Below are positions 6,260 to 63,961 of a stretch of 64,000 nt of DNA, piece by piece. The DNA is from Chlorops oryzae. Its lineage: Eukaryota; Arthropoda; Insecta; Diptera; Chloropidae. Location: positions 161,008,879 to 161,072,878 of the forward strand of contig CM035806.1 in the NCBI GenBank assembly GCA_020466095.1, written 5' to 3'. The notes below the pieces were generated by a model, which saw only the letters and a list, made by a program, of their open reading frames with translations, searched no databases and was not told where the DNA came from. Each line of letters opens with the position of its first letter. The stretch's first letter is position 1. The position numbers were made by a program, and so were the translations under genes.

Positions 6260-7507
6260 ATGTCCAATCAAGAGGCCGCGGCTACAAACGTTTTGGTTTT
6301 GGCTAACCAGCAACCGGCAGCATTCTCCGTGGGCAGTATGGCCGCACAGCTCGAGGGAAACGTTTCGCCAACACCGACGACAACGCCGAACCATATCGAG
6401 GACGGTTCGAAGAATCTGAATAGCAATAGCAATAATAACAACAACAACAACAACAATAATAATAATAACAATAATAGCAATAAAACAAGCAACAATAAAA
6501 ACAACAACGACCCCAAAGAAAATAATAATAATAGCCACGAGAACTACAATAACAACATCAACACCAACAATGATTTAAATCAAAGTAACAGCACGAGCAA
6601 CCGTAGCAGTCCTTTAAAGAGCCCGGTCAGTCGTCAGCATCCCCATCCGCACCAGCTGCAGAATCATAATAGACATCAACGTCAACGGCGCAACACTGTA
6701 GATTACAGTGATAACGAAGAAGAAGGAGAAGACGACGACGACGACGACGACAACCGAAACGACAACCTTAACAATAACAATAACAATAATAACAACGACG
6801 ATAACGAAGACGACGACGACGACGACGACGCCGAAATTGTTCAGCACGGCCGTGTCCACGGCCACGACAATTCTCGTTACGATGATGGACTGCATCATTT
6901 TGGCAGCGCATCGGGTTTGAATGTTGTTGGTGTTGGTGGAATTGTTGGTGCAAACAATAGCAACAACAACAACAACGGCAACGGCAACAGCAACAACCAC
7001 AATCCTACACCCGATTATTGGACACAACGAAACGGTGGCCTGCCGCCAACGTCATCGTCAGCGATATCGGGCGGACGCGGCAGTCGTAACCGCGCCAATT
7101 TGCGTGCCGTTAGTCCCAGTAATTACGCTGGGCCACCAGATAATATGAGCGAGAATTCCGAGCAACCGCCTGTGGCGCCACTGGTACGTTCCAAATCCCG
7201 ACCCGAATTCTCATCGAATGCACAGCTCAATAGTGCCGCCAGCCGTTATTCGAATCTATCGTATTGGAAGGCTCGACGTGTCGTCTTCTATCGAAATGGT
7301 GATCCATTCTTTCCGGGCGTCGAATTGCGCTATCGACCAGGACGCGATATCACATCGCTGGACAGTTTGCTTGATAAAATTTCACCTAAAATGGACCTGC
7401 CACGCGGAGCACGCTATGTCTTCTCCATGGACGGCGATCGGAAGTATCATCTGGACGAGCTGGAAGATGGCGCTTCCTACGTGCTGTCATCGTTCAAAAT
7501 GTTCAAG
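6260..7507 (+). CDS. DCX-EMAP coding exon 1: disordered N-terminus and DCX domain 1
   Basis: 416 codons ending AAG|GTAAGT, phase 0. Residues about 54-90 are an Asn-rich run, about 150-190 alternate Asp/Glu and Asn blocks, and about 230-245 form another Asn run. The DCX domain begins near residue 335 ([19 protein letters not shown]), with [11 protein letters not shown], the central [10 protein letters not shown] helix and the [11 protein letters not shown] motif. The domain finishes in exon 2. I chose the ATG at 6260 because it is the first in frame; its context has C at -3. The second in-frame ATG at 6338 (residue 27) has A at -3 and G at +4, so initiation there is possible. Reading through the donor adds 36 codons and a stop at 7616. 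Confidence 0.93.
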
Positions 7508-10500: not shown

Positions 10501-11116
10501 GTCAAATTCTAATTACCTCAGAGACCTCCGTTTCGGTACATTGACTTTGTCATTACCGCAGGGTCTTCTTCTTTTTCTAGCGTGTTCTTTCCCGGCTTAT
10601 ACCCGGGTCCGCATGTTTTGAATTTTTTCTCCATATTCTTCTTTCCACTGCATCCTCGATTCTTAAATCAGTCGCTTGGAAGTCCCTTTTCAAAATGTCT
10701 AGCCATCTTTGTTTTGGTCGTCCTATTGGCCGAACACCTGTCACTTCAAGCCTCAAACTTCTCTTTGCCAAAGTGTTCTCACCAGCACGCAGTACGTGTC
10801 CATACCAACGTAATCTTGCTTCGCGAATTTTATCAGCTATTGGAGCAACTCCATATCGGTTTCTGATCGTGTCGTTTGGTATCCGATCAAGACGTGTCAG
10901 CCCGGAAATCCAGCGAAGCATCTTTGTTTCCATGACACTGAGACAACGTTCCGCTTTTTTTGCAGGGTACCTACAAGAAAAAAAAAAAAGATTTTTCATC
11001 ATTATATATATTCCAAAAATTGATATGTATACTTTTGGGAGTAAAATTTAAATAATTTTAAGTCCAAGATCAGTTCTGTTCCACAAAATAGATCGTGTTT
11101 AAACGGACAACACACT

Positions 11117-17100: not shown

Positions 17101-20100
17101 TATGTGTCGAGGGTTTTATTGCATTTGTGTGTAACACTCACAATCAGTCGAGATATACCATAGAAAATATATATAGAAATGATCAGCGTCGCCAGGTGAT
17201 TCGATTTAGGCATCCGTCCGTTCGTCCGTCTATCCGTCTGTCTGTCTGTATATAGTTCTCTTATCTAAGGAGTTGAGCTATCTTGAAGAAATTTGGTATG
17301 CGCGCTCACTGGGACATGAGTAAGAACAGGTTCAAGGAATGGACCCGATTGGCCCATTTTTAGGCGTACCTTCAGCATTAGGGTCTGTTATGAAAATCAC
17401 AAAAACGAAGTTTTTCAAGATATTTTGATGAAATTTGATATTTTAACATGTTTAAAGGCAATTAATGTGATTTCTAAAAATTATTAAAATGGGCGTGGCA
17501 GAAGGGAGTTTTTCGAAAATTGTCTCCTACACCCGGGAAATTCAAATGCGATGTAAATGAAAGTTGGCACGTATGTTTATTTTGTAGCCATAAACATCAT
17601 GCCCAAAAATGTTCTTGATCGGTCCATGATTAGGGGTACCTCCGGTACTAAGGTCTGTCACAAAAATCCCAAAACTGCCCCCAAAATCGGACTTTTTCGA
17701 AGTATTTGAATGAAGTTTAGAATTTGAGCATACATATATTTAATCCTCCGATTAGAATTTAAAAAAATTCGAAGTATTGGGCACATCAAAAGTCGGTATA
17801 TAGGGCCCCCTATGTGCCGGGTATTTAATTGTCAGGCTCGCCTGACTATAACACCCTTACTTGTTTTCTTTTGTTTAATTGTGAAAATTTAACAAACAAA
17901 CAATGGACGCAATGACCGATATGCCCTCGAACAGATACAGTGCACATATATTTGTTTTCAAATTAATCCCGCTGAAGCTAACAATACAAAAAAAAAAAAA
18001 TACAAAAAACAAAAAAGAGAAGAAATTTTTCATAGCATACTCATAGGCTATAGTTTTATTATCATTTCTATTCATTTGCATTCTTTTGTCTGGCTTCATT
18101 TTTTGCGCAACAATTCCTTATCCTTTCAGCGAAGTCAATTTTGCTGCAGTCTTTTGACCGAAAACATTCAATTCGCTTCCAATGTAGATTGAAAATTTGC
18201 CTTCTTTTCGTTCGCATGCATGCTCATCCATGCATACAAAGGCTTTTGTCCTTTATACGTCGACCAAAGGAAGAATAGATGAAAATACTTGTAAAAATTG
18301 AAATTGAATAAATTTTTAGTTTCATTTGAATGTAAAAAATTTTTCCCATAGTTTTTTTTCTCTCTGATTTTTCTCTGTTTTTTATTTTGTTTGTTATTGT
18401 TTTTTTTTAAGTTTTTTTATTTTTATTTTCTGTCCTCTATTCTTTTCGTTCTTTTTCGGAATAAAACTTTGCGACAAATGCCACAATGGAATGCATGGCA
18501 GTTTTAAAAGGAGGAAAAAAATGGCTTAAATATTTTGCGGCTCTTACAGTTTTCCCGTACATATCTGTGTGTGTGTGTGTGTGTGTGCGTATTCATATGA
18601 GCATTCCCAGTAAAGCTTTCTGGATTCGAAAGAAAGCGCAAAACAAAGTAAAAAAAGAAACACAATGAAAAACAATTCCACAAACTGTCTGCCACTCTCG
18701 GCAGTGTTCCACTGACGTAAAGGAATTCTCATAAATGCAACGGAGTCGTCAACCGTCGACATCCCGTTTTATGAGAACTATAGGGCTATAGTTTTTCCCC
18801 ACACAACACATACCTACACACACGCACACACATAAGCAAACAAACATACACACGGTCGAACTAACCATTTTGCTAAGTACGCTTTAACTCATACAAAAGT
18901 GTCGCTATTCGTATGTTTCAACATGCATGAATGACCCTCTAATACGTACGAGTAGTACTACGAGGGTTTATTAAATAGTTTAGAACTTAGAAATCTATGG
19001 TGGCATATTTTCAGGGATTAAAAAATATATGACGGATATTAAAAAATAAAAACAATTTAAGTGCAAGGAAAAAGGCGAGCTCTTGTTATATTGAAGAGAA
19101 ATTACAATTTCTTAACTTAGCCCTGGATGGCTCCTCTTCCTCGAAACGACGAAGCACTTTCATTTTTTCCCGCATAAGGATAGAAAACAGTGCTCTTAAA
19201 ATCTTCATTTTTCAGAGAATAATTATTTTTTTTTTTAATTTTTTTATTTTTTTTTTGTTCTAAAATTGTCAATAAATAATTTCGCAAAAGTCGGTATTTT
19301 TTTTACTCAAAAGAGTTTTGCCTCGCAAGCTTCTGAAAATGATGTTTGTCGATTCGACGAAGTGTAGCCAAAACGTAATACTTAAAAATAAGCCAGGGTT
19401 AACGGCTTTTTTTAGGGCTATGTTATCGATAGAAATGCAAATAATTTGAAGGCCAGCTCCAATTCACATAAACATCAAACGGTCACTTTCTCGTTCGTTT
19501 CTAGAAGCAAACAAAAAGATTAACTGACCATACCATGGTAGTAGCCAATCAAACTTGATTGCCTACGTGTTCTTCTTGAAATTTTATACAACGTCTATGG
19601 ATTATAATTGAACTTGGCCTGGCTTATCTTCTTCTTCTTCTTCTTGCGTATTCAAATGTCCCGGCCTATCCGAGGTGAGTCCTACAGCATCGAGGCTCTC
19701 GTTGTCTGCAACCTTGAATTTTCGAAGCAGGACTCATTTATTTATTGTTATTTTCTTGTTCATTGAGATTTTTTTTTTATTTTGTTTTTTTTTTGTGAAC
19801 TTTGGGTGTTCATTGGGAGGCTTACTGCTACCTTCATAACATGGTACTTAATTTTTTCTCACTAAGATATACAAGTATTTCTGCCTTAAAAAAAAATTGA
19901 GATATTATTTATTTTACAGATATTCGAATCATTCGATTTGAGCATATTTCCAGGGAATTTTTCAATAGGGGTCTTCCCTTAAACGTGTATTTGCCTCGAA
20001 AACTTCGAAAAATCGTAAATCAAGAAGGCTTAGAAATTAATGAACGAAATTTTGTATGAAAAATTTTACACTTTTACGATTTTTCAATCTTTTCACTTTT

Positions 20101-23100
20101 AAGGGAATACCCTAAATGTTTTTAAAATTCTCGTAAAAATATTCCTTTAATTCGAATGATTTACTGTTCCTTATACTTAATTATAAATGGCCTTGTCTGA
20201 ATAAATCATTCAACGAGAAACAGAGAAATCGAGCCTCGTAGCTTCAAAAAATTGCATCGTTTGTCGCTTTACTTTTTACTCTCGCAATCAAACCCGACGC
20301 ATACAAGTGCTTACAAATATCAACGACGGACAGTCGGACAGTCGGACGACGGCAGTGCAATGCCTGAAGACAAAAGCAAAAACTTTTGCGCTCAAAAGTA
20401 GGCTTCAATATTTTATGACGATCATAAATTGAAAGAATAAAGTCTTTTCGCTCAGTATTTTGACATTTTGGCATTTTGGCAGTTGACGTTGGTTGTAACT
20501 GTCAACTGAAAAGTTGTTGACTCGAAAACTTTTCTTTTTTGTTGTTGTTTTATTACATTTTGTTTTGTTCTCGCTTGTTTTGTTCGAAGGCAGCACAACA
20601 GAGGTACAAAGGAACACAAAAGCAAAATAGAATAAAACAATATGCAAAGCAAATGAAAAGAAAAAAAGAAAAAAAAAAAAACGGAACGGAACAAAGCGAT
20701 TGACGATTGCGGAAGAGCAAAGGAACAAAATACATAGAAATGCCTCTTGCCTGGCCGTATCTTTTTTGTCTTTGTCTATTCGGAAAAAGTGCAACATGAA
20801 GAAGAATAAGCCTTACAGAACCATAGACACATGTAAGTGAGCAAGCTGCCTATAAACAAAATGTCCGTCCATTTCCGTTAACAAAGTGAAAGTTTTTCGA
20901 AATTCAAATTGCCTCAAACACACACAGACACACTTACGCAAACGGGCAGAAGGACAGACGGAAAAGCAGGCAAACAGACACGGACGGCCAGACACAAACA
21001 TAAACAACAATCTGCTCCCGCACAATACAATGGAATAGAAATGAAAACGTACGAAAGTGGTACAAACGGAAATGCAAAATGCAATCACATAACGGAATAC
21101 GGTCTGTCGTCAGTTGTCCCCAACGTTTCAATATCCACCATCGTGCATAGTGATCAATGCATGCATGTGCATATTAGTATATGTACATATATATGTGTAT
21201 GTGTGCACGTCTAAAGGTATTTGGCAAACGATTTTGTTATGCCCGTCGAGCTAGGTGGTAAGGTTAGTTTAGCTTACTTCATATTATCGTATCACCACTT
21301 TATAACGAGTTTTAAATACACATACACATAGTTGCACAACGTACAAGCACACAAACACACACACACTCACACGCACACACACACAAAAGTATACACATTT
21401 GTACACACAATAAAAAGCAAGAGTGTTCATTTTCTTTTATTGTTATTATTTTTTTTTTTTTTTTTTTTTTACTTACTTCCACTGGACTGTAAGGGACAAG
21501 AAAGTATCTTTTATGGTAGCCGTGTGAATGCCAGGGACGGTTGTCTATGCTGAGTGGCCTGATGTTAAGGGAAAAATAATGGCTTAAGCAGTTAGGGCTA
21601 AGCCGAAGAGTAATTGATTTCTTCTTCTAGATTTTATTCGAATGTCCTTTTGCTCGCTGCGATTGAACCGGACCTGGTTTGTATGCATAAACGATTGTTG
21701 TTCGAGCGTGAAATTCATATGCGACATTCGATCTATATTGCATCAAAGCCATGCTCATATCGTTTAGTCTTCAGCAAAATTGTCGCGCAATCGAAAGTGA
21801 AATTTTGCAAAATTTTCCGCTATCGAAGCAACGAAGGTACAGTTCACAAAATAAATAAAAAAGTAAACATCGTAGATTCGTCAATAAGAAGAAGTGCGTG
21901 CTACAAAATTATTAAGAATCATTGCCATTTATTTTCGGTTAAAGCAGTGTAAATATAGTGAGCCCAAAAAAGAAATCTCATCGTTTGTTCAATTCGTTAT
22001 CCCGATATCGTGCAATTGGGCCTGAAAACGTCAACATAGCATGTAGCAACCTAGTCGTCATTGTCGTTATTCGTTCGTTGTCCGAACGTTCAAATGTTTA
22101 AGGCCATTAATTATATTCTTTATGGCTGCTGTCGTTATTTGTTGTGAAATGAAATTAATAAATAGTAAAAACTCAAAAGCAAAACGACCAAAATATAACA
22201 AAAACGATTCATAAAAAGCGAACAAATTAAAATAAATCACAATAAAGCCACAAAACAATAAATATTCAAATAAACTGAAAACAACCGAGAATAAAGAAAA
22301 AGAGCCAAGAAAGAGGTTACAATTTATCCTTAGCCGTAATCTAAAAAATTTTCTTTAATAAACGGCCAATGTACTTAGGATTCGAGCACTTAAACTTGTC
22401 TACATATAAGTTTTTGTATGAAAAAATTAAGTAAACTGCAAAAAATCAACACAAATAAAATCTCTATAAATAAAAATAAATAAATCCGAAAATAAATATT
22501 TGCTGAAAAAGTTTTAATAATTAAAAAAGAAAAAAAACAACAAAAAATACAGAACAAAAAACGAATAGATGATTTCACATCAAACATATATGTAAAATTA
22601 AAAATCTCTTTAGTACTCAAAAATACCAACATACATACATATAAAGCGTACTGCTATACACTTTATATAGAGAATATATATAGAAACATTAAGGGTGGTA
22701 AAATATGGACAACATGACTGCGTTCCAACAGGAAAAGCCATCACTGCGTGATTATTGGGCGAAGGAGGCAGCACTGAATGCGTTTATACAAACAAACGTA
22801 AGCGGAATGGAATGAAAAGCAAATAGCAAAAAATAAAAAAAAATTTTGTCTGTAAAGTCAATTTACGGACGATAGTTTTACGTGATAACGTCATAAGAAA
22901 ACACTCGTTATGTACATAAAAAGGAGCATTCAAGTATTACGTACACTATTTTTGACGATTTTTGAAACTCCCTCCCCTTAGACTTATTAATTTAAAAGTT
23001 AGACATTAAGTCTCATTTTGTAATTTTTTTTTGTGGTTTTTAATATAAGTATAAAATAGAAAACAATAATTATACTTCAATTTTTAAATTAAAATTGCTT

Positions 23101-42352: not shown

Positions 42353-44662
42353 GCTTAAGTCGTTTTCTATACTTCAAAAGAATGGCAGTCGATTGGCGGC
42401 AGCCACTGCGGGACGCCATTTTCACGCTATAACTTTCAAATTATACAATAAATATTAGTAATCGAAAAGTGAAGTATTGACTTGAGATATAAACAAAAAT
42501 TAAAACAAATATAAGAACGTCATTGCCAATAGAAATTTAATAGATACCGTTTATATTTCGAAAGAAGAGTTAACCTATTTTCGCATGCGCTTTGAGTTAC
42601 ACTCATCGAATGTCCCCGAGCCAAAATTTGAAAAAAATTCATTGCATTAGTGAAAGTGTTGAAATTTCGAAGAAAATTTCATTTGATTTAAACAAAGCGA
42701 AATTCAAATAAAATGAAAATAATTTAAACGCCATTCCAAGAAGTTAATGTGCGCTGGCTCTCAATGGTGCTTCTACTGTTTTAAGCAACTTTTACTTTTA
42801 CTGCCACTTATGCGTCGCATGGCTGCACGCTCTATGATGCCAGATTTATTCATGGGACCCCGAAATTTCACTCAAATTTTAATGTGCGCAATGAAGTGCT
42901 CAAGTGATTTTAATTAAGTCATCTTAAGATCGTTGAAATTTCACTTTCAAAACATTCTCAGACTGACGCTTCGTCAATTTGACTAACTTTGAACATAGCC
43001 CGATTTCCATAATTTAAACAGTAAAGCTTTTTTTTTTCATGATGCCAGGCTGAATCGATCATCGATCGATCGTCAATCTCGTCAATCTCGTCAATGTCAA
43101 TAAAGGCTATGAACGATTGTGATTACACTCAGGGACGTAGATAGAGAAAGAGTGTTTTAGTAGTGCTGATATTGGGCACAGTGGCATATTGAACAATTAT
43201 GAGACATTAGCCAAAAAAATTTTGGGGGGAACAGAGGAAGTTTAGAGAGTTGTTTCAAAAAAAAAAAAAAACCTTATTTCTTCATCGAAAACGATCTATA
43301 ATTCTTTTTTAAGCCACTTGATTGCAAAAACACAAAAAAAAAAAAAAAACGATCTGCTGTTTTTATGATGTATCATGCATAAAGGGTTAATAAAACCATT
43401 CCATTCGAAAACAATTCTTTCCCGCTTATTTAATATATCATGCAATAGAGTGTTAAATTCAAGTTAATATGTAATTTACCACCGCTGATCATTACTTTGA
43501 TGGGCATATATCCCCTGAACGTCTCCAAAATAGGGCCAAAATTCGTATAGATTTTATTTTGAAATCAAAACAATGATATGGTCCCATAAAAATTGCCCCC
43601 CAAAGACTTTTCTCTCCTAAGTCTCCCTAGAACGGAGCAAAACTTCCCTTTAATTGAGACGCAGTTCCCCAAAACTGGCAACAATGCTATTTACTTTCCA
43701 TGATCGTTACTCAATTTTCGAATCTAATAACCCCACTCTGGCAGCATTATATTGGCAATTCAGGGTTGTATTTTGAGCGGATATTATTAAAGAGCGCATC
43801 GCATCGCATCGAATCGTGGAATCAATCTTCTGTGTAGCCTTTCAATAAAGTATTTCGAAAAGAAATCACAACTTTAAAATATAAAAAAATTTCTAATTAA
43901 ATAGCTGTGCTTGTAACTTACTCGGCATCTTTTGCATTCACCGTTTTCGCTGTGCTCTCACGTCGACATTTTAAATAACTTTTTCGAAAGTTAAAACGTT
44001 AAAAGCAATAGCAAAGGACAAAAAGAAAAAGTTTCAAACGCAAAGAAGAGAAAGAAAACAACATAAAAAGAAGAAGGAAACGAAGAGGCGGAGGAAAAAT
44101 AAAACCGGCAAAGCAACTGAAATTTCCAATTTCCCCACAAACTTCCGCAAACATTTTCTTTTTCCAAACACATTTCCGTCGTCGCAAAGAGCCAAAGTAA
44201 TAAAACTTCAAGTCTTAAATGTACGAGAACGAAAGCGACGAAAGTTCCCCGTTTGTGATGCTGTCATCGCCCACTAAGTCTTGGGTGCGTAAAATGGAAA
44301 ATGAAAAAAAAAAAACATTTTTTTTTTTGGAAAATTTTTTTAAATTCAAAAAAAATATGGCAAAAAATGAAACAAGAACACTTTGAAGAGTCCACATTAA
44401 AATAAAAATTAAAATCTAACTTCCAATTTGAAAAAGCACACCTACACACGCACACACAGTTGCACATTATTATTGGCTGCAGTTTCTGGTGCCGCTGGTG
44501 CCGGTGCTGGTGCTTCACATCTCTGCTGCTCCACTCCACTTCTCTCTCCCTATCTGGCCGCTTAACTTTTTTGCCCCAAGACTGTTTTTTGCTGCTGTTA
44601 ACTTTTCGAAAAATTCAAATATTCTTTTCCTTTTGGGAAAAACGCTTAAATGTTCATAAATT

Positions 44663-44696
<34 letters not shown>

Positions 44697-44918
44697 AATC
44701 AACGCACAGCTTGACGTAACCCGTTCGCTCTCTTTCTAACTCATTCAAATGCACTTAAACGCTATGCATATGCAAATCACTATGACTTGTAAATCATTTT
44801 ACGTTGATGTTTTGCCATTTTTTCCATTCAGTTCAGAAGTCCAATCAAGAAGCATTCAATAAAGTTTGCATATCCTCTTTTTTCCATAATAATTTTCTTT
44901 GAAGCTCCCAAACATAAG

Positions 44919-44956
<38 letters not shown>

Positions 44957-50900: not shown

Positions 50901-53719
50901 TTCTGATGGGAAATTTTTCACTCTTTTATTGAAACGTTTCTTTTTTTCTCTGCTCTTGTTCTCTGGCTCTTTCCAGCCGGCTAGCTACGGTAAAAAGAAC
51001 GGCATGTGGTACGCCTCGCCCGGCAATCAGGGCTGGGGTTCAAAGCCTGCAAGTCGAAAGCCATCGATAATGGAAGCGGATTTGGGCACATTATCGACCA
51101 CATCGGGCTCAATAAAGCGCAGCGCCGGACGCGTGATACGCATCATCAATAATTTGGATCATTCCGTTCAGGTGAGTAGCGACTGTATGTGCGTGTGTGT
51201 GTGTGTGTGTGTGGCGTATTTGTGTGACTGTTGCTGTTGTCGTTGGCAGATATTGGACATGGCTTTCGACAACCTTCATTCGATCGAACCGGATTGCTGC
51301 ACTTTGCATCGATTTCATTTTGGAGCTGATTGTGTCGGCGCTGCCGATAGGAAATCGAATCGCGCATATAGTGTATATACATATATAAATATGTGTATGC
51401 CCATGTGTGTGTATGTTTGTGTGTGTGACAACTGGTGATAAAATGAATAAGGAGGCTAGCAAAAACTACAACAGAACGCACGAAATCGCGCTTAATATAA
51501 TTGAAAATGGTAGCAGATGTTCTTAAAAGATTCCTCTTTCCCGGTCGTTCCGTCCATCTCGTGTCCTTTAATGCGCTCATACATTTTTTGACGCTTTGTC
51601 CTTTCATCATTATTACTAACTATCTTTTTATTGGATTTATTCCTTTCAATTATTTATTCAATAAATTAAGTCAAAGTTATCAGTTCTGTCATCGATGGCT
51701 ACGGTGACCATAAATTGAAATTGAAAAAAACAGAACAAAAAATTTTTTTTTTTTTTAGTCTTCAACTTAGTTTATTTAAATCTTTTACGAGGTTATCACA
51801 GAACGGACCTTTCAATCGGTCCAAGGATAATGACGATCGAATTTGCACATTTCGCTATTTTCCACTAAAAAAAAAAACGCAGAAGAAGCGCCTAAAAAAC
51901 AGAACACCTCTGCTAAAAACAGATATGATGGTCACCGTATCGATGACACATAAGTGACAATATCATGAACGATATTTTATGGCCAGTTTTATTCTTTAGT
52001 ATCTCTATTCATGGAATAGATAGTCACCTTAAAAAAGGCCGCCCGTTCGGGCCCCTAGGAAAGCAATAAACAAGTGAAGTTCCTCAAAAAAAAAATTTTT
52101 TTTCTATCGCATCCCCCAGGACTGGTGCTCTCATTCGAGCCATAACTGATTGCTCTTTCAGTTTCCTTACAAGGTGACACTATCACGGATCATGAACTTT
52201 TTCCGCTAGGGTAATACTTAACTTTATTTTATATTTTCCTGACCATGTTTAATATATATGTAGTAATTGCATTAAATTCAAATTACGAACTTATGCCATT
52301 TATTATGTCCATTAATTACGTAAGATTTTTATTACTTTTTTCACGTTCGCGTTTTCAGTCTTTGCGCAGACAGTTCTGTTGTAAAAAGCCAGAGTGATAG
52401 AGCAAAGACTTAAGACGCGAACGTGAAAAAAGTAATAAAAATCTTACGTTATTAATGGACATAATAAATGGCATAAGTTCGGGTGAATTTGAAAATTTAA
52501 ATTGCAATTATTACTACATATATTATTATTTCTATTGCTTGTATGGTCAGGAGGTTGCAGGGATTAGAGGGGGAAAAGAAAACTTAAAACAAATTTCATT
52601 TTGCAAATTGGCAGTTCGAACGGAATTTTTGGCGTGTTCAAGGCCGTAGTGCAGCGTTTGATATGAATATATTCCCATTTCAAATATGTATTGCCAATAT
52701 TCGAAATGGCGAGCCTGAAAGCATGCTGTCTTTTATGCACGTCATAGCTGCAATTTATTTCCTTTCGCGTGGGCTTTCGAAAGGTGCAAATTATTTTTTC
52801 GCTTGCATAAATTTTACCGCAACGGAATGAATTGCCAAAAAAACAAAAAAAAAAAAAAAAAAAAGAGAGGAAAGTATGCCTTTCCTCGCGCCCTCAGTCC
52901 ACGTTTTGCACTTCTACGCCCGCGCTCCATCACTCTTCTCACTGCACTGCGGTGGTGATGTTCGTCAAAAGCGGCGCTTAACGAATCCGGAGCAGGTCTC
53001 CGTCAATCGACTACGGCACGATGGAGAGCTTTCGATTTTAGTTGACTTTTGTTGTTGTTGTTGTTATTGTTTCTTTCGCTTTCACACGAAGAGAATTGCT
53101 AATATTGCTGTTGTTGTAATTATTAGTGCCGACAAACGTTCGCACCTTATAGATTAGCTTTGAACGAGTGAAATTGCCTTCTTCGAAGTCTCTGTGGAGT
53201 TCATGATGATGGCTCGAGTCGGATCGTATCTCTTAATGTCAGCACACACACGCAAACACACAAACGCGCGCGCACACACACATGTACGTACACGCAAATA
53301 CACATGACTATGTAGAAATGTGCATGCCGGAATTTTGGAATGTCGGAAATTACCAAATTGGCCGTGACTCCAATTACGTTTGGTGTGAAATAAAAAGAAA
53401 AAACAGCAACAAGGTAGCACAAAGAGCAAGCGCTGCAACAGTATGTGTGTTTATGAGCGCATTTGTGTGCATTTGTGCTTTTAAACCATTTTGCGTCTAG
53501 GTTTGACTGCCGGCATGTTCGTTTACTCTACGCTTGCATTTAAATATAAATAAAATGCAGCCAATTCATTTTATATGTAGCATACATTTTGGCGCCCTTT
53601 TTGTTTTTTTTTTCTCTCATTTTTCGATCGTTGAAAATCTTACCTGAGGAAAGGTTAAATTGCATTTGAAACCTTCAATAAAGTCATTCAAAAGAACACT
53701 GATTCAAACGAGTTAACAA

Positions 53720-62000: not shown

Positions 62001-63961
62001 AGCTCTCAACATGTAATGTAGGAAAAAGGAATTGCGGGTTGGATGCCCCGTTGTTTCGCTTGCTTGCTTGTTGAGTTGATTTTCTGTTTTTCAACCGAGC
62101 ACAGGAAGTCGTTAGAAAGGAAGCCCGCAATATTCGAATGAAAAATAAATAAAATTAAAGGATTTAACCTAAATATGGTGCACCATGACTTACTTATTTG
62201 CTTCTTAAATCGACTGTTGCTTTTAACCCCTTTATTTCGAAATTTGCAAAAGAACAATTTCTAAGAAAGCATACCGTAAGCGTAGGAACCAACAAAATAT
62301 ATTTATGTATTGTCGTCGTAATGGAGGAACTCCTTTGGATGTTCCTACTCGAAAGTTCTTGAATTCGATAAGTAGTCTTTTGACTATTTGAGGCAGAAAC
62401 GGTTGTTTAATGCTTGCCGAACTCTCTGCTTGCCGTGTTTCTTTCAGTGTCGTGTTCTCTTAAATTTACGCACCTCTCAGCCATTTGAAGATGTTCTCGA
62501 AGATTTGGGTCAAGTTTTAAAGATCAATGGAGCTAAAAAAATGTACACAGGCACAGGACAAGAGGTACGTACTAAATTGTTTTACTTTCAGTTAAACTCT
62601 TCTCGAATTTATCTCCATCTTTTTCACTCGTTCTCCTTTTTTGTCTTCCACTCTTTTCATCCCTTTTTGTCTCTCTCATTCTCTATCACTCTCTTTCTCT
62701 CGCATTCTATCTATTTATCTTCCTCTCTCTTTATCTTTCTCTGTCTTTCTTTATCTTTCTATCTCTCTTTCTTTCTTTTTCTCTATCTCTCTCTTTTTGT
62801 CATTATCTTTTTCTCTCTCTTTCTTTCTCTTTTTCTCTCTCTATATATATATCTCTCTCTCTCTCTTTCTGTATCTTTCTCTCCCTTTCTCCCCATTTTC
62901 TCTCTATCTCTATATTTTCATAGGTTCGTAGCTTCTCACAATTGCGCAATGAATTCGCCGATGTTGATACCTTCTACTTGGCCACGGGCACTGCCTTAAT
63001 TGCTGGATCGCCGATTCGTCGTTCTCGCTCACGTCCATCCGTGGTCGCTGCTGCACCAATTTTGCCAAACGAAGAGCTACCCAAGGTTCCACTTCGTGGC
63101 GCTCGTCCGCGCAGTAAAAGCCGTCCTCGTATACTCTATGCGCCCGAGAGCGAAATCCTCCGATCGAATGGAGAATACACAATGCTGGACATTATGAAAG
63201 AAGAACCGACCAAAGTGACCATACGTGGCCTGCGACGAACATTCTATCCGCCGGTTCATCATGCTCCCGCAGATAATTCACCGCCCGACAAAAAACTCCA
63301 ACTTCAGTGGGTGTAAGTCCAAAATTAAAAAAAAAAAAAAAATATAAAAAAATATTTATGTCGAATGAGAGCAGAAGAGAATTTAATTGGGCTATCCTTG
63401 CGTTTCAGTCACGGCTATCGCGGCATTGATGCGCGTCGTAATCTTTGGGTTCTGCCTTCTGGTGAGCTTCTATATTATGTAGCCGCCGTCGCTGTTCTAC
63501 TTGATCGCGAGGAGGATGCACAACGTCATTACATCGGTCATACCGAGGACATTATGTGGTGAGTGGAACCAAACGGTGTATAAAGAAGCCCGATAATTCT
63601 GCCCGTCTTTTTTGCACTCCCATTAGCATGGACGTCCATCCGTCGAGGGAATTGGTCGCTTCAGGTCAGAAGGCTGGTAGAGATCGAAAGTCACAGGCTC
63701 ATGTACGCATATGGAGTACCGAATCGCTTCAGACCCTCTACGTATTCGGAATGGGCGAATTGGATAGCGGAGTTACGGCAGTTGCATTCTCGCAATTGGT
63801 ACGTCTCAACATGGGTACATATGATCATTCGAAAAAACTTACTCCTCTCGTTTTCTCGTTCGCAGAATGGTGGAAGCTATATTTTAGCAGTGGACAGTGG
63901 ACGTGAGAGTATACTATCGGTATGGCAATGGCAATGGGGACACCTGCTGGGAAAAGTGGCG
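6260..63961 (+). CDS. DCX-EMAP gene: doublecortin/EMAP-like microtubule-associated protein (3' end outside window)
   Basis: Join of exons 6260-7507, 50977-51171, 62448-62564, 62924-63312, 63409-63558, 63627-63798 and 63866-63961. All junctions use GT/AG and keep frame, giving 789 codons before the window ends. Domain order: disordered Asn/Asp-rich N-terminus (about 1-330), DCX1 (about 335-420), Lys/Ser linker, DCX2 (about 465-542), Arg/Ser-rich linker, HELP region with [14 protein letters not shown] (about 649 onward), then the first WD40 blades. EML proteins bind microtubules. In Drosophila, DCX-EMAP is needed in mechanosensory (chordotonal and campaniform) neurons; that role is family knowledge, not visible here. 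The remaining WD40 repeats must lie to the right. A candidate alternative start exon is at 22705. Confidence 0.93.
7508..10560 (+). other. Intron 1, left part: simple repeats only
   Basis: Start of a 43.5-kb intron (7508-50976). After the donor comes a GATC-repeat (about 7534-7560). Further on are AATTG/ATCGA pentamers (8160-8215), an (ACTGA/ACTGG)n tract (about 8680-8755), poly-T runs and a CA repeat near 9275. No exon-like or protein-coding segment was recognised. Confidence 0.6.
10561..10957 (-). mobile_element. RTE-type non-LTR retrotransposon fragment (reverse transcriptase C-terminus)
   Basis: On the minus strand about 125 codons read through to a stop at 10577, with motifs [38 protein letters not shown] and a C-terminal HADP. 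This pattern is typical of the extreme C-terminus of RTE-clade LINE reverse transcriptases. Only this end is present and the catalytic core is missing, as in 5'-truncated insertions. The 3' end carries a short AAGAAG-type tail, usual for RTE elements. Not functional. The first residues of the longer open frame (11002-10958) look like flanking DNA. Confidence 0.8.
11119..11157. repeat. Poly-A homopolymer, about 39 bp
   Basis: Uninterrupted A run followed by AC and GAAGAAG repeats. Its length may be unreliable in the assembly. Confidence 0.85.
11241..11540 (-). pseudogene. Possible leucine-rich-repeat-like coding fragment
   Basis: A minus-strand open frame has a coding-like pattern: [26 protein letters not shown], then [14 protein letters not shown]. 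The spacing of Leu and Cys recalls leucine-rich repeats of fly F-box proteins. No ATG opens it and no splice sites or repeats of the unit are evident, so a decayed gene fragment or chance are both possible. I do not recognise the gene. Confidence 0.22.
11553..17085. other. Intron 1 stretch, no genes seen
   Basis: AT-rich intronic DNA with poly-A/T runs, a GA tract (12506-12530), CCTTG/CCGTG pentamers (13340-13378), a GA tract (14764-14781) and CTCT/GTCTCT repeats (15250-15310). The A-rich, G-poor half around 12900-14200 yields only Phe-rich minus-strand frames. One 118-codon frame at 16445-16801 lacks an ATG start and resembles no family. Confidence 0.5.
17086..17867 (+). mobile_element. Hairpin-ended non-coding repeat, copy A
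   Basis: Starts TTATAACCGACACACTATGT, then has GTCCGTCCGT/CTGTCTGTCTG repeats. It ends with the perfect hairpin GTCAGGCTCGCCTGAC followed by TATAACACCCTTACTTG. Three related copies lie in this window (45165-46336, 54672-55126, 57383-58250). There is no coding capacity. The 3' hairpin close to the end resembles Helitron/Helentron-type non-autonomous elements, but that class is inference. Confidence 0.75.
17868..19967. other. Intron 1 stretch, no genes seen
   Basis: AT-rich DNA with a GT repeat (18565-18587), a CA-rich stretch near 18810-18850 and T-rich runs. A (TTC)n run at 19628-19645 followed by a GC-richer segment to about 19735 could be the 3' end of a reversed LINE, but no coding part supports it. 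Confidence 0.45.
19968..20112. mobile_element. Short fold-back MITE with TA flanks
   Basis: 145 bp. Left end GGGGTCTTCCCTTAAACGTG and inverted right end GGGTATTCCCTTAAAAGTG match with few changes. TA lies on both sides (19966-19967, 20113-20114). Inner arms also pair (CGAAAAATCGTAAA with TTTACGATTTTTC). A Tc1/mariner-type MITE is likely. Confidence 0.55.
20113..22639. other. Intron 1 stretch upstream of the alternative exon
   Basis: Contains CA repeats (20905-20940, 21354-21388), a long T run (21450-21470) and a G-poor, A-rich segment (22140-22620). No conserved coding region was seen. The last part may include regulatory DNA for the candidate alternative promoter. Confidence 0.4.
22640..22646 (+). 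promoter_or_regulatory. Possible TATA box for the alternative first exon
   Basis: TATAAAG lies 65 bp before the ATG at 22705, which would leave a leader of about 30-35 nt with no upstream ATG. The surrounding DNA is AT-rich, so chance occurrence is quite possible. Confidence 0.3.
22705..22797 (+). CDS. Candidate alternative first coding exon of DCX-EMAP
   Basis: 31 codons from an ATG with A at -3 and G at +4 ([20 protein letters not shown], then [11 protein letters not shown]), ending AAC|GTAAGC in phase 0. Exon 2 also begins in phase 0, so splicing 22797 to 50977 would give a protein starting with these 31 residues. That protein would lack the disordered N-terminus and DCX1 but keep DCX2, HELP and WD40. 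Many third positions are G or C (GAC, AAC, GCG, TTC, CAG, CTG, AAG), unlike the AT-rich surroundings, which supports coding. Read-through stops five codons past the donor. A first exon of some other nested gene is the alternative; transcript evidence is lacking. Confidence 0.62.
23591..24226. mobile_element. TA-flanked MITE inserted in R1 copy 1
   Basis: 636 bp with short inverted ends CACTGAG / CTCTGTG and TA on both sides. The R1 copy near 39900 reads straight through this site (GGGATACTTATGCACGG) without the insertion, so both boundaries and the TA duplication are confirmed inside the window. AT-rich, with repeated GGTTGA/TCAACA motifs and no coding capacity. Tc1/mariner-like by its TA target. 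Confidence 0.8.
24392..24464. repeat. Cluster of ATCGA motifs with two TATCGATA sites
   Basis: About eight ATCGA/TCGAT units lie in 75 bp, including perfect palindromes TATCGATA at 24398-24405 and 24455-24462. TATCGATA is the Drosophila DREF-binding element. The cluster sits inside repeat R1, so it may be a transposon-borne feature rather than an enhancer of the host gene. Confidence 0.5.
24481..27255. other. Intron 1 stretch, no genes seen
   Basis: Unique-looking AT-rich DNA with a GT repeat at 25939-25955 and a poly-A run at 26840-26855. Open frames are short and without recognisable domains. Confidence 0.45.
27256..27370. mobile_element. 115-bp Tc1/mariner-type MITE
   Basis: Ends CAGTCGAACTTC and, inverted, CAGTCGAACGTC, flanked by TA on both sides (27254-27255, 27371-27372). 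Non-coding. Confidence 0.7.
27646..28621. mobile_element. TA-flanked MITE carrying tRNA-like segments
   Basis: 976 bp between TA dinucleotides. The left end CACCCAGAGAAAAAACC and inverted right end CACTGAGGGAAAAACTGC resemble the ends of the 23591-24226 element, with gaps. Inside are a T-arm-like segment on the plus strand (GGTGGGTTCGATCCCTG near 27880) and a fuller tRNA-like segment on the minus strand (28197-28264). The ends are less exact than in the other MITEs here. Confidence 0.55.
28197..28264 (-). pseudogene. tRNA-Thr(TGT)-like pseudogene
   Basis: On the minus strand, a five-pair anticodon stem CTAGA/TCTGG encloses the loop CTTGTAA (anticodon TGT). GAGTTCGAACCC forms a B-box/T-loop and GGCGTAGTTGAAG resembles an A box. 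The acceptor and T stems do not pair well, so this is a degenerate tRNA-derived sequence rather than a working gene. Confidence 0.5.
28624..29595. other. Intron 1 stretch, no genes seen
   Basis: AT-rich DNA with TATG-type runs near 28630-28690 and an (AAC/AAT)n stretch near 28940-28970. No coding evidence. Confidence 0.45.
29596..30245. repeat. Degenerate minisatellite, about 51-bp unit
   Basis: The core ATGACTCCGAAATGAGTCCG returns at about 29653, 29702, 29752, 29803, 29891, 29943, 30002, 30053, 30116, 30148 and 30199, mostly 49-52 bp apart. Units differ by point changes. One spacer is expanded by a TACATACA microsatellite (29825-29865). Minus-strand open frames here are a by-product of the periodicity. 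Confidence 0.85.
30886..31842. mobile_element. Candidate PIF/Harbinger-type non-autonomous element
   Basis: Perfect 9-bp inverted ends GGGTGTCCC / GGGACACCC are flanked by TTA on both sides (30883-30885, 31843-31845). A TTA/TAA duplication is characteristic of PIF/Harbinger. No transposase is visible. Inside, segments such as ATAACAGA and CCTCCGGT recur, suggesting internal duplication. The short ends make chance pairing possible. Confidence 0.5.
32488..32809 (+). CDS. Possible small lysine/alanine-rich ORF, apparently frameshifted
   Basis: An ATG at 32488 opens [16 protein letters not shown]... and stops at 32592. A second frame open across 32567-32809 continues without its own ATG: an Ala run, then [20 protein letters not shown] and [11 protein letters not shown] before a stop. 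The later part uses mixed, coding-like codons. The two frames could be joined by a 1-bp length error in the A-rich tract (32523-32565). Product unrecognised. A decayed retrocopy or chance is equally plausible. Confidence 0.25.
32810..33925. other. Intron 1 stretch, locally CpG-rich
   Basis: 33200-33600 is richer in C, G and CpG than its neighbours and free of recognised repeats apart from a CTCGCT run at 33220-33240. A donor-like GTTTG|GTGAGC occurs at about 33583. It could be a non-coding first exon or an enhancer. Poly-A (33711-33731) follows. Confidence 0.3.
33926..34650. repeat. Homopyrimidine tandem array, 10-bp unit CCTCTCTCTT
   Basis: About 70 units in tandem. The leftmost units are CCTCTCGCTT or CTTCTCGCTT variants and the core is nearly pure CCTCTCTCTT, with two register shifts near 34190 and 34240. 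All bases are pyrimidine except the G variants at the left edge. The long Ser/Leu/Phe/Pro open frames across it are artefacts of the missing stop codons. Confidence 0.95.
34651..37845. other. Intron 1 stretch with CA/GT repeats
   Basis: GT repeat at 35817-35851, CA repeat at 36582-36606, GTTT runs (36500-36520) and several poly-T tracts. A 69-codon ATG frame at 37585-37794 just before repeat R1 has no recognisable domain. Nothing else supports a gene. Confidence 0.45.
37846..37945 (+). repeat. Repeat family R1, copy 2, first block
   Basis: Near-identical to 22847-22951 (same start, three or four differences over 100 bp). It abuts the trinucleotide array that follows. Confidence 0.85.
37953..38713. 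repeat. (GATGATGGT)n trinucleotide array
   Basis: About 760 bp of GAT/GGT/GTT triplets. The first 450 bp keep a three-base register, giving Met/Val-rich and, on the other strand, His-rich frames. From about 38410 single-base indels break the register repeatedly. A short remnant of the same array lies at 39470-39515, so intervening DNA (38714-39469) separates the two parts. Confidence 0.95.
39160..39469. mobile_element. Candidate hAT-type MITE beside the GAT array
   Basis: Ends CAGTGATGCCAAATTAG and, inverted, CAGTGTTGCCAACTCC share the CAGTG.TGCCAA motif common at hAT ends. 310 bp, non-coding, with the 16-bp palindrome GCGCTAGATCTAGCGC inside. No 8-bp duplication was found. The right end abuts the array remnant, so the left flank may have been rearranged. 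Confidence 0.55.
39633..39818. mobile_element. Small inverted-repeat element
   Basis: Ends GCACTGATGCCAG and, inverted, GCACTGATGCTAG (12 of 13). 186 bp, non-coding. No clear target duplication, so the class is uncertain. Confidence 0.45.
39842..40020 (+). repeat. Repeat family R1, copy 2, last block
   Basis: Matches 23522-23590 followed directly by 24227-24345, showing the state without the 636-bp MITE present in copy 1. Confidence 0.8.
40021..41358. other. Intron 1 stretch, no recognised feature besides CA repeats
   Basis: CA-rich repeats near 40830-40910 and 41157-41190. The last 150 bp before 41359 are CpG-richer and could be a leader for the small ORF that follows. Confidence 0.4.
41359..41544 (+). 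CDS. Candidate small membrane-protein ORF (61 codons)
   Basis: The ATG has A at -3. The product starts [20 protein letters not shown], has a hydrophobic stretch (about 35-48, [14 protein letters not shown]) that could span a membrane, and ends in a Thr run encoded by an ACA repeat. The upstream 150 bp is relatively CpG-rich. No family was recognised. It lies in the same orientation as the host intron. Chance is a real alternative for an ORF of this size. Confidence 0.28.
   Translation: MPNSVIHNTPWWTLWALFKTYINCYEILYDIADFSIVIASVLCLYYAKLTAEATTTTTTTS
41767..42033 (-). CDS. Candidate small ORF with hydrophobic core and Arg-rich tail (88 codons)
   Basis: The minus-strand ATG sits in an excellent fly start context (AACAAAATG). 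The product has a hydrophobic segment (about 30-50, [12 protein letters not shown]) followed by an Arg/Ser-rich tail ([15 protein letters not shown]). It is convergent with the ORF at 41359-41544. No homologous family was recognised. The Arg-rich part comes from a GCGAC-type repeat, so the frame may be repeat-driven. Confidence 0.25.
   Translation of the reverse strand: MPNNDLRPSRFYPYHKCLFAYEFRTTTRSFTVFVFVVAALLRSVHIVIVGSAFNLRSCLRRCRSRYRSRSRRNRNVAAKIVNQHESGH
42034..45164. other. Intron 1 stretch, no genes seen
   Basis: Poly-A of about 37 bp (42315-42350), ATCGATCGATC (43057-43067), GTCAATCTC repeats, GCATC repeats (43797-43815), and two CA repeats (44668-44693, 44921-44954). Open frames are repeat-derived. 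Confidence 0.45.
45215..45346. mobile_element. 132-bp fold-back MITE inside copy D
   Basis: Ends TCGCACACCCTCTTCTAAGG and, inverted, TCGCACAGCCTCTTCTAAGG differ at one position. The related copy at 54672 reads through this site (GACACACATGTTTAAAT), confirming the insertion and a short CA duplication. Confidence 0.75.
45586..46091. mobile_element. 506-bp inverted-repeat element inside copy D
   Basis: Ends TTACATGACCAACT and, inverted, TACGTGACCAACT. It is flanked by a 9-bp direct repeat ACTCATGTC (45577-45585, 46092-46100) that is single in other copies. The interior has repeated TACCGATTTT/GTACCG motifs. A target duplication of 8-9 bp suggests hAT or a related superfamily. Confidence 0.75.
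46337..48157. other. Intron 1 stretch, no genes seen
   Basis: A single pogo-like end, ATACAGTGAAACCTCCATAT, occurs at 47357 without a partner. Poly-A near 47700. No coding evidence. Confidence 0.45.
48158..49866. repeat. (AACAT)n pentanucleotide satellite with a degraded middle
   Basis: 48158-49044 is almost pure AACAT with a handful of single-unit indels. 49045-49735 is degraded A/C/T sequence with only one G (near 49114) and long A runs. 49735-49866 returns to pure AACAT. The huge minus-strand Leu-Cys-Tyr-Val-Met frames are artefacts of the repeat. Confidence 0.95.
49890..50425 (+). mobile_element. Second hairpin-ended non-coding repeat
   Basis: Begins with CGTCTGTCCAGTCGTCTGTC runs and ends with the hairpin GTCGGGCTTGACCGAC followed by TTTAGCTTTCTTACTTG. 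The plan matches copies A-D (CTGTC repeats at the head, hairpin and CTTACTTG at the tail), but the interior differs and contains CCGCCCACTGCCACGCCCAC. The left boundary is uncertain. Confidence 0.6.
50977..51171 (+). CDS. DCX-EMAP coding exon 2: linker and start of DCX domain 2
   Basis: 65 codons, phase 0 at both ends. It is preceded by a strong pyrimidine tract ending TCTTTCCAG and followed by CAG|GTGAGT. It encodes [20 protein letters not shown] (end of DCX1 and linker), a Lys/Ser linker, and [15 protein letters not shown], the first strand of DCX2. Any transcript starting at 6260 or at 22705 would enter here. A GT microsatellite starts 18 bp after the donor. Confidence 0.92.
51172..52254 (+). 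other. Intron 2, left part
   Basis: Start of an 11.3-kb intron (51172-62447). GT repeats at 51189-51212 and about 51403-51427, poly-A/T tracts near 51725-51756. Open frames are repeat-derived. Confidence 0.6.
52255..52522. repeat. Long inverted repeat (hairpin arms of about 115 bp)
   Basis: The arm 52255-52370 (TATATGTAGTAATTGCATTA onward, through TTTTTTCACGTTCGCG) is mirrored by 52404-52522 with few mismatches, with a loop of about 30 bp. If transcribed in the intron it would fold into a long hairpin. A fold-back or MITE insertion is the likely origin; no clear duplication was identified. Confidence 0.8.
52523..54671. other. Intron 2 stretch, no genes seen
   Basis: Poly-A (52847-52864), a GC-richer stretch (52880-53040) without a convincing exon, CA/CG repeats (53243-53285) and a CA repeat (53722-53750). 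Confidence 0.45.
54672..55126 (-). mobile_element. Hairpin-ended repeat, copy C (internally deleted)
   Basis: Reverse orientation: AACAAGTAAGGGTGTTATAG and the hairpin GTCAGGCGAGCCTGAC at the left, GTGTGACGGGTATAAA at the right. At 455 bp it is about half the length of copy B, with the middle missing. It supplies the empty site for the 132-bp MITE in copy D. Confidence 0.75.
55127..55877. other. Intron 2 stretch, nothing specific seen
   Basis: Poly-A (55258-55280) and AT-rich unique DNA. Confidence 0.4.
55878..56118. mobile_element. hAT-type MITE, copy 2
   Basis: 241 bp, same family as 3164-3406. The ends CAGGGCTCGGATTATGTTG and, inverted, CAGGGCTCGGATTTTGTTG are flanked by CTTATATT and CATATATT (7 of 8). 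Confidence 0.8.
56119..57382. other. Intron 2 stretch
   Basis: A GC-richer segment (56440-56700) containing CCTAACCTAACC and two CCTTTTCC.GTTGG motifs may be the remnant of a transposon, but no coding motif identifies it. The rest is AT-rich. Confidence 0.35.
57383..58250 (+). mobile_element. Hairpin-ended repeat, copy B (most complete)
   Basis: Starts TTTATACCCGACACACTCTG, contains GTCCGTCTGTCCGTCTG repeats and two tandem-like halves each with AGTACTAGGGTCTGT and GTGGGCGTG motifs. It ends with the perfect hairpin GTCAGGCTCGCCTGAC, then TATAACACCCTTACTTG. 868 bp, non-coding. Confidence 0.8.
58251..59842. other. Intron 2 stretch, no genes seen
   Basis: An AAC repeat (59046-59074) and a short GT repeat (59451-59467). 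A TTCTTTT-rich stretch (59230-59310). No coding evidence. Confidence 0.45.
59843..60194. mobile_element. Candidate MITE
   Basis: Inverted ends TACTCAGCCAACTA and TACCCAGCCAACCA (12 of 14) enclose 352 bp of non-coding DNA with repeated GGAGTGCTCCA and GAGCTCC-like motifs. No target duplication was confirmed. Confidence 0.45.
60195..62447. other. Intron 2, right part
   Basis: Tandem TAACG (60710-60735) and TTAAAG/GGAGAC/GAAGAC hexamers (60755-60805). GC-richer patches at 60900-61200 show no convincing exon. The intron ends with TGTTTCTTTCAG. Confidence 0.5.
62448..62564 (+). CDS. DCX-EMAP coding exon 3: core of DCX domain 2
   Basis: 39 codons, phase 0 both sides (TTTCAG|TGT...GAG|GTACGT). It encodes [20 protein letters not shown], then [19 protein letters not shown], the central helix and strand of DCX2. 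The following 359-bp intron is strongly CT-rich (62590-62910), giving the next acceptor an unusually long pyrimidine tract. Confidence 0.92.
62924..63312 (+). CDS. DCX-EMAP coding exon 4: end of DCX2, Arg/Ser linker, start of HELP
   Basis: Acceptor TTTTCATAG, donor GT|GTAAGT, ending in phase 2 (129 codons plus 2 nt). It encodes the last part of DCX2 ([20 protein letters not shown]), a linker rich in Arg/Ser/Pro ([17 protein letters not shown]), then [20 protein letters not shown] and LQLQW, which lead into the HELP motif. Confidence 0.92.
63409..63558 (+). CDS. DCX-EMAP coding exon 5: HELP core
   Basis: Completes the split Val codon, then [20 protein letters not shown], a hydrophobic [13 protein letters not shown] segment and [22 protein letters not shown], a hydrophobic stretch and QRHY.GHT is the hallmark of EMAP/EML proteins. 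Ends in phase 2. The flanking introns are 96 and 68 bp, typical minimal fly introns. Confidence 0.93.
63627..63798 (+). CDS. DCX-EMAP coding exon 6: first WD40 blade
   Basis: Acceptor CCCATTAG. Completes a Cys codon, then [37 protein letters not shown] and VTAVAFSQL, the pattern of EML WD40 repeats (CxxxHP...ASGQ.AG). Ends TTG|GTACGT, phase 0. Confidence 0.92.
63866..63961 (+). CDS. DCX-EMAP coding exon 7: WD40 continuation, last exon in window
   Basis: 32 codons ([32 protein letters not shown]) ending GCG|GTAGGC, phase 0. It continues the blade begun in exon 6. The next intron starts at 63962 and leaves the window, so the remaining propeller and the stop codon are not seen. Confidence 0.9.

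What the first reader, a model, noticed from the sequence alone, without database searches (positions are those of the whole stretch)
22705..22797. Hidden 31-codon alternative first exon inside the giant intron
Seen: an ATG in good context, 31 codons with GC-rich third positions in AT-rich surroundings, a consensus-like donor (AAC|GTAAGC) in phase 0, and a possible TATA box 65 bp upstream with no intervening ATG. Exon 2 starts in phase 0, so the frame would be kept. Inferred: a second promoter makes an isoform without the Asn/Asp-rich tail and DCX1, leaving a single DCX domain plus HELP/WD40. Such an isoform could bind microtubules differently.
Basis: partly seen in the sequence, partly recalled or inferred. 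Interest (0 to 1): 0.8.

Follow-up and report, generated by a model that had tools for sequence, protein, structure and literature searches.

The report
Wrong exon; real alternative start elsewhere
The proposed hidden exon looks like a chance reading frame, but the idea behind it holds up: the same giant intron of this fly microtubule-binding gene contains, further along, a different short starting exon that other insects share.

Summary
The 31-codon frame at 22705-22797, its phase-0 GT donor and the upstream TATAAAG are in the sequence, but no result shows it to be an exon. The 43.5-kb intron holds 3 such frame-plus-donor combinations against about 1.5 expected under a simple model. GC3 is 52%, rank 34 of 298 intronic ORFs; its codon score is better, rank 10 of 298. 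None of 122 DCX-EMAP relatives held shares a 5-residue word with the peptide. It is single-copy in its own genome. A relative hidden inside a protein cluster cannot be excluded.

The idea is supported at another place. Window 44219-44284 (+) encodes [22 protein letters not shown], ends at a phase-0 donor and could join exon 2 at 50977. It matches the start of a DCX1-less Drosophila palustris protein (E=1e-7). Similar starts occur in gene models of seven insect orders. Such short isoforms are already in public gene models; their first exon had not been located in this window. The shared pattern, usually acidic residues then F-x-x-[VIL], resembles an Atg8/LC3-binding motif, which is untested. 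The DCX domain retained scores below Pfam's cut-off.

The parts
22705..22797 (+).
6260..7507 (+). Exon 1 coding part of DCX-EMAP: Asn/Asp-rich tail and DCX1, donor AAG|GTAAGT, phase 0
44219..44284 (+). Conserved alternative first exon, [22 protein letters not shown], donor TGG|GTGCGT, phase 0
50977..51171 (+). Exon 2 ([12 protein letters not shown]...), the shared acceptor exon
62448..62564 (+). Exon 3, part of the divergent second DCX domain
62924..63312 (+). Exon 4, end of the DCX2 region and the HELP motif up to its last residues
63409..63961 (+). Exons 5-7 (63409-63558, 63627-63798, 63866-63961), start of the first EML propeller; the gene goes on about 3.2 kb past the window

Best explanation
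The 22705 frame is most likely a chance open frame in intron 1 of the fly DCX-EMAP gene. Shown: that exon's sequence, its place between exons 1 and 2, its phase-0 donor, and its match to the start of a DCX1-less protein model of Drosophila palustris. Inferred: transcription from a promoter upstream of 44.2 kb, splicing of 44284 to 50977, and a product of 22 residues followed by the divergent DCX2, HELP and the WD40 propellers. Also inferred: loss of DCX1 weakens microtubule bundling, and the new N-terminus adds a short linear docking motif.
For:: of 11 insect alternative N-termini searched against the window, 5 list a hit at 44219-44284 in the 60 rows printed (D. palustris E=1e-7, 70% over 20 residues; the others E 0.015-0.12); exon plus exon 2 finds D. 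palustris first, 92% over 100% of the query, 167 bits against 138 for the next; phase-0 GT donor; no ATG in the 318 bases upstream; the only place lying wholly inside intron 1 hit at E<=1e-3 by the 120 relatives (hit by 1 of them); 24 of 36 models that enter exon 2 from something other than DCX1 carry this kind of start. Against 22705 as an exon.
Against: No transcript evidence. Only one higher-fly representative (D. palustris) shows the exon; the profile without Drosophila gives it only E 0.16-0.18, and in one of two settings another segment scores higher. Six of the 11 peptides had their best printed hit elsewhere. Codon scores do not separate the two: 22705 ranks 10 of 298 and the 44219 ORF 15 of 298, and another frame of 44219 scores higher than its own. 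The 22705 frame has mild positives (codon rank, TATA box).
Confidence: 0.8

Rival explanations
1. The 22705 frame is a genuine, lineage-restricted additional first exon of DCX-EMAP, used from its own TATA promoter beside the conserved one at 44219.
For: Open frame, phase-0 donor, TATAAAG at 22640, codon log-odds rank 10 of 298, single-copy sequence, A-rich UTR-like upstream stretch.
Against: Such frames are expected by chance in an intron this long; no relative among 122 proteins; donor lacks G at -1. The protein database shows only cluster representatives, so absence is not proof.
Confidence: 0.1
2. The frame is part of something else: a 36-codon small open reading frame (22705-22815) or an exon of another transcript nested in the intron.
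For: The frame closes with TGA at 22813-22815, soon followed by A-rich sequence with AATAAA-like words.
Against: No Pfam match; eight ATGs upstream in 21901-22704. Proteins shorter than 451 residues were not searched with this peptide.
Confidence: 0.05
3. The 44219 exon is a relic in this species, and DCX1-less forms, if any, start at Met codons in exon 2.
For: Several models start at or just before exon 2 (for example P0011, P0023, P0054, P0064).
Against: 44219 keeps peptide, frame and donor relative to D. palustris, which an unused exon would not be expected to keep.
Confidence: 0.05

Closest known systems
DCX-EMAP / CG42247 (EMAL_DROME), the Drosophila doublecortin-domain EMAP
   Same: Same gene by order and identity of exons: 95% identity with the D. 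simulans protein over 91% of a 265-residue query; DCX1, HELP and the first EML propeller above Pfam cut-offs.
   Different: Not a different kind of gene. Here intron 1 is 43.5 kb and the alternative exon sits at 44219-44284.
Annotated short DCX-EMAP isoforms of other insects (e.g. P0004 Drosophila palustris, P0015 Agrilus, P0041 Culex)
   Same: A short N-terminal peptide with F-x-x-[VIL] joined directly to [18 protein letters not shown] of exon 2, no DCX1.
   Different: Only D. palustris is close along the whole peptide (blastp-short E=1e-13). The models outside flies share mainly the core; most are computer predictions, so use in vivo is unknown to me.
EMAP-like proteins (EML1-5 of mammals, ELP-1 of worms)
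   Same: HELP motif and EML propellers.
   Different: Of the EMAP-like family compared in PMC2642796, the passage seen predicts an additional DCX domain in the fly protein.

Membership tests
DCX-EMAP (CG42247) gene | Doublecortin domain (PF03607) in exon 1 | tested here: met
   62.3 bits against a cut-off of 22, residues 361-415 of the joined protein
DCX-EMAP (CG42247) gene | HELP motif and EML-type beta-propeller | tested here: met
   69.8 bits (cut-off 27) and 130.4 bits (cut-off 88.2); the propellers' remainder lies past the window
DCX-EMAP (CG42247) gene | Second DCX domain | tested here: inconclusive
   18.6 bits, below the cut-off of 22; profile comparison with DCX1 no better than column-shuffled controls, alignments very shallow; fitting strand/helix order at residues 75-147 in a model of mean pLDDT 47
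Alternative first exon of DCX-EMAP, for 22705-22797 | Peptide matches alternative N-termini of other insects | tested here: not met
   No shared 5-residue word with 122 proteins; rank 883 of 2716
Alternative first exon of DCX-EMAP, for 22705-22797 | Phase-0 donor compatible with exon 2 | tested here: met
   AAC|GTAAGC, phase 0
Alternative first exon of DCX-EMAP, for 44219-44284 | Peptide matches alternative N-termini of other insects | tested here: met
   D. palustris E=1e-7, 92% with exon 2 included; rank 1 or 2 of 2716 with a non-Drosophila profile at E 0.16-0.18
Alternative first exon of DCX-EMAP, for 44219-44284 | Phase-0 donor compatible with exon 2 | tested here: met
   TGG|GTGCGT, phase 0
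Alternative first exon of DCX-EMAP, for 44219-44284 | Transcripts that start there and join exon 2 | not testable with these tools
   No RNA data held
LIR/AIM (Atg8/LC3-interacting) motif, for the 44219 peptide | [FWY]xx[LIV] core with acidic or Ser/Thr residues before it (definition recalled) | tested here: met
   FVML after SDESSP; 25 of 25 compared peptides have the core, 22 of 25 an acidic residue in the six before; the set was largely chosen by a similar pattern, so this is partly circular
LIR/AIM (Atg8/LC3-interacting) motif, for the 44219 peptide | Binds an Atg8-family protein | not testable with these tools
   Needs a binding assay or complex prediction

The most novel reading that the evidence does not exclude
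An ancient alternative promoter of insect DCX-EMAP, shared by gene models of seven orders, swaps the DCX1 microtubule-binding domain for a short Atg8/LC3-docking-like motif (acidic or Ser/Thr, then F-x-x-[VIL]), so that one gene makes a tandem-DCX form and a form that links microtubules or ciliary structures to autophagy or other Atg8-coated membranes. In this fly that exon is 44219-44284.
Probability: 0.12. Interest if true: 0.55.

Novelty: new member of a known kind. Interest (0 to 1): 0.3.

Why it matters
DCX-EMAP is reported as needed for fly hearing, coordination and mechanosensation, and for noxious heat responses (PMC12117425, passages). Knowing which exon starts the DCX1-less form says which isoform a given mutant, RNAi line or tag hits. 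The shared N-terminus gives a concrete docking motif to test. For genome reading it is a caution: in a 43-kb intron an ATG frame with a fitting donor is expected by chance, while a search with relatives' N-termini finds the conserved exon directly.

Tried and rejected
Rejected: 22705 as part of a transposon; the nearby repeat starts at about 22835, after the frame's stop, and 22600-22834 has one match in the own genome (that search skips very common words). Rejected as evidence: GC-rich third positions. Not informative: the bacterial promoter scan. Led nowhere: DCX1-DCX2 profile comparison; Rfam (0 matches at gathering scores); Pfam on five window ORFs (0 of 5 with a match at E<=1). Literature, open-access library only: DCX-EMAP with 'first exon' (0 papers); 'LIR motif' with doublecortin (2 papers) and 'LC3-interacting' with EMAP and Drosophila (2 papers), seen as listings, none about this gene by title. 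Bechstedt et al. 2010 is not held; what it shows is known to me only through other papers' passages and recall.

Limits: the donor matrix is from memory. The 23 peptides are 20 picked by a pattern (21 picked, D. palustris left out) and 3 added by eye, out of 36 non-DCX1 models; the other 12 of the 36 were not used (7 have starts of 11 residues or fewer, 5 have other starts). Four peptides (P0058, P0069, P0098, P0118) were cut by hand to a Met. In one search the exon-2 words PASYGKK, expected as a positive control, returned nothing, so its negative is weak. One search found 154 relatives and listed 120; saw those (one search also the two added). BLASTP coverage reached into the peptide for some (63 of 122), with at most 5 identities. 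Database entries are cluster representatives. The 22-residue exon is too short to appear in the whole-genome protein search (one search does not list it). Order names of the insects are recalled from their genus names.

Full report
The gene. The + strand carries the orthologue of Drosophila DCX-EMAP (CG42247). I placed coding exon 1 at 6260-7507 and exons 2-7 at 50977-51171, 62448-62564, 62924-63312, 63409-63558, 63627-63798 and 63866-63961 by reading splice sites and frame and by translated search with 120 relatives. Pfam finds DCX, HELP and the first EML propeller above cut-off. In the own genome (442 Mb, 1044 contigs) the gene runs about 3.2 kb past the window; 7 of 10 matches to the D. palustris protein lie at this locus and the other 3 are weak (21-25% identity). 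Intron 1 is 43,469 bases.

The observation. The frame at 22705-22797 reads [31 protein letters not shown] and is followed by GTAAGC in phase 0, with TATAAAG at 22640 and no ATG between. The anatomy is as described, with two corrections: GC by codon position is 0.52/0.35/0.52, which is not third-position rich, and the donor lacks G at -1. Unspliced, the frame ends at a TGA at 22813-22815.

Chance. With an approximate donor matrix (recalled), 3 ATG frames of at least 31 codons with an equal or better phase-0 donor lie on the + strand of the intron and none on the other. First-order Markov sequences give 1.54 on average and locally composed ones 1.46, with at least one in 78%. A second-order model with repeats masked gives about half the observed count in all four settings tried (5 seen against a mean of 2.60 for GT[AG]AG and 31 codons); the excess is spread over many places. 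On codon usage trained on 533 codons of this gene, the frame ranks 10 of 298 intronic ORFs, and by GC3 34 of 298; the ORF at 44219 ranks 15, so this measure does not separate the two. TATAWA lies 40-100 bases before 52 of 873 intronic ATGs. These mild positives were looked for after the fact; with them I keep the rival at about 10%.

Relatives. A search of 5.8 billion clustered proteins with the 22705 peptide plus exons 2-4 found 154 relatives, 120 listed. Of the 122 proteins held in the end, none shares a 5-residue word with the peptide; local alignments run into it in 63, with at most 5 identities in 23 residues. A focused search found no candidate, but its built-in control words also found none, so it is weak. 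The frame matches only itself in the own genome, as protein and as DNA. Because the database shows only cluster representatives, a hidden relative cannot be excluded.

What the relatives show instead. Of the 120 listed, 79 enter exon 2 from DCX1, 36 from something else, and 5 have no recognisable exon-2 start. In 24 of the 36 (21 by a pattern, 3 by eye) the start is a short peptide with F-x-x-[VIL] or Y-x-x-[VIL], usually after acidic residues: D. palustris [23 protein letters not shown], Topomyia MFDSEEESAFVILTPPM..., Atheta MIDFEIDEDTPFAVVTVPSM, Choristoneura MLDSDEDAPFVVVSLP..., Temnothorax MSDSFEVISLPADMMQ, and others from bugs, Timema and Schistocerca. A Dendroctonus model (P0058) holds DCX1, then this peptide, then exon 2, consistent with the exon lying between exons 1 and 2 there. 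The other 12 start at or near exon 2 (7) or have other starts (5).

The exon in this window. Eleven such peptides were searched against the window. The best hit of all is 44219-44284 with D. palustris, E=1e-7, 70% identity over 20 residues; four others also list it (E 0.015-0.12), and six have their best printed hit elsewhere. It reads [22 protein letters not shown], then GTGCGT in phase 0, and the 318 bases before it hold no ATG. Searching exon plus exon 2 ranks D. palustris first, 92% over 100%. A profile built without any Drosophila sequence ranks this segment 2nd of 2716 under one build setting and 1st under another, at E of only 0.16-0.18, and the 22705 segment 883rd. It is the only place wholly inside intron 1 hit at E<=1e-3 by the 120 relatives, and only by D. 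palustris.

How it most likely works (inferred). A promoter near 44 kb would make a transcript that skips exon 1 and joins 44284 to 50977, giving 22 residues plus exon 2 onward, without the Asn/Asp tail and DCX1. What remains of the tandem is a divergent DCX2: 18.6 bits against a cut-off of 22, not detected in a profile comparison with DCX1 on shallow alignments, but with a fitting strand-strand-helix-strand-helix-strand order at residues 75-147 of an otherwise poor model of P0004 (mean pLDDT 47; blocks there 48-77). Passages of Coquelle et al. 2006 (PMC1550402) say that one DCX repeat assists polymerisation while two promote bundling, put single-DCX proteins of fruit flies, honeybees and mosquitoes in the DCLK3 group, and name EMAL_DROME with HELP and WD repeats in a branch close to DCLK3. 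This suggests that a single-DCX product of the gene was in print by 2006 as a gene model.

The docking motif. All 25 peptides compared (23, P0004 and the window's) have [FWY]xx[LIV], and 22 have an acidic residue in the six before; shuffled peptides average 9.8 (maximum 19) and 6.5 (maximum 14). The set was largely chosen by a similar pattern, so the count is partly circular; that the pattern sits at the same place in gene models of seven orders is not. It resembles the LIR/AIM motif that binds Atg8 proteins (recalled). Two literature searches listed no paper on this gene with such a motif. The 22705 peptide has no such core.

Verdict. The idea of a DCX1-less isoform from a second promoter is supported at 44219-44284. 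Such isoforms are already in public gene models, so this is a new location of a known kind, with one testable motif idea.

Noticed in passing
22835-24339 and 37828-40021: Three collinear segments of 67-118 bases shared at 95-99% identity (22835-22952/37828-37945, 23524-23590/39844-39910, 24227-24339/39909-40021), probably two copies of a young mobile element, one starting about 20 bases after the 22705 frame's stop.
   Followed up: partly
10577-11047 (-): An ORF of 156 codons that reminds me (recalled) of the tail of a non-LTR retrotransposon reverse transcriptase; no Pfam match at E<=1.
   Followed up: partly
52250-52525: An imperfect palindrome that matches its own reverse complement at 84%, in the intron after exon 2, perhaps a small inverted-repeat element.
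   Followed up: no
17081-17773, 46092-46331, 54835-55107, 57378-58079: A dispersed repeat family in the introns, 73-84% identical between copies.
   Followed up: no
33921-34690, 37957-38710, 48155-49880: Long tandem arrays with units of 10 (CCTCTCTCTT), 3 (ATG) and 5 (ATAAC) bases inside intron 1.
   Followed up: no
P0058 (Dendroctonus ponderosae protein model): The model carries DCX1 and the alternative N-terminal peptide in one chain, probably an annotation fusion of two alternative first exons.
   Followed up: no
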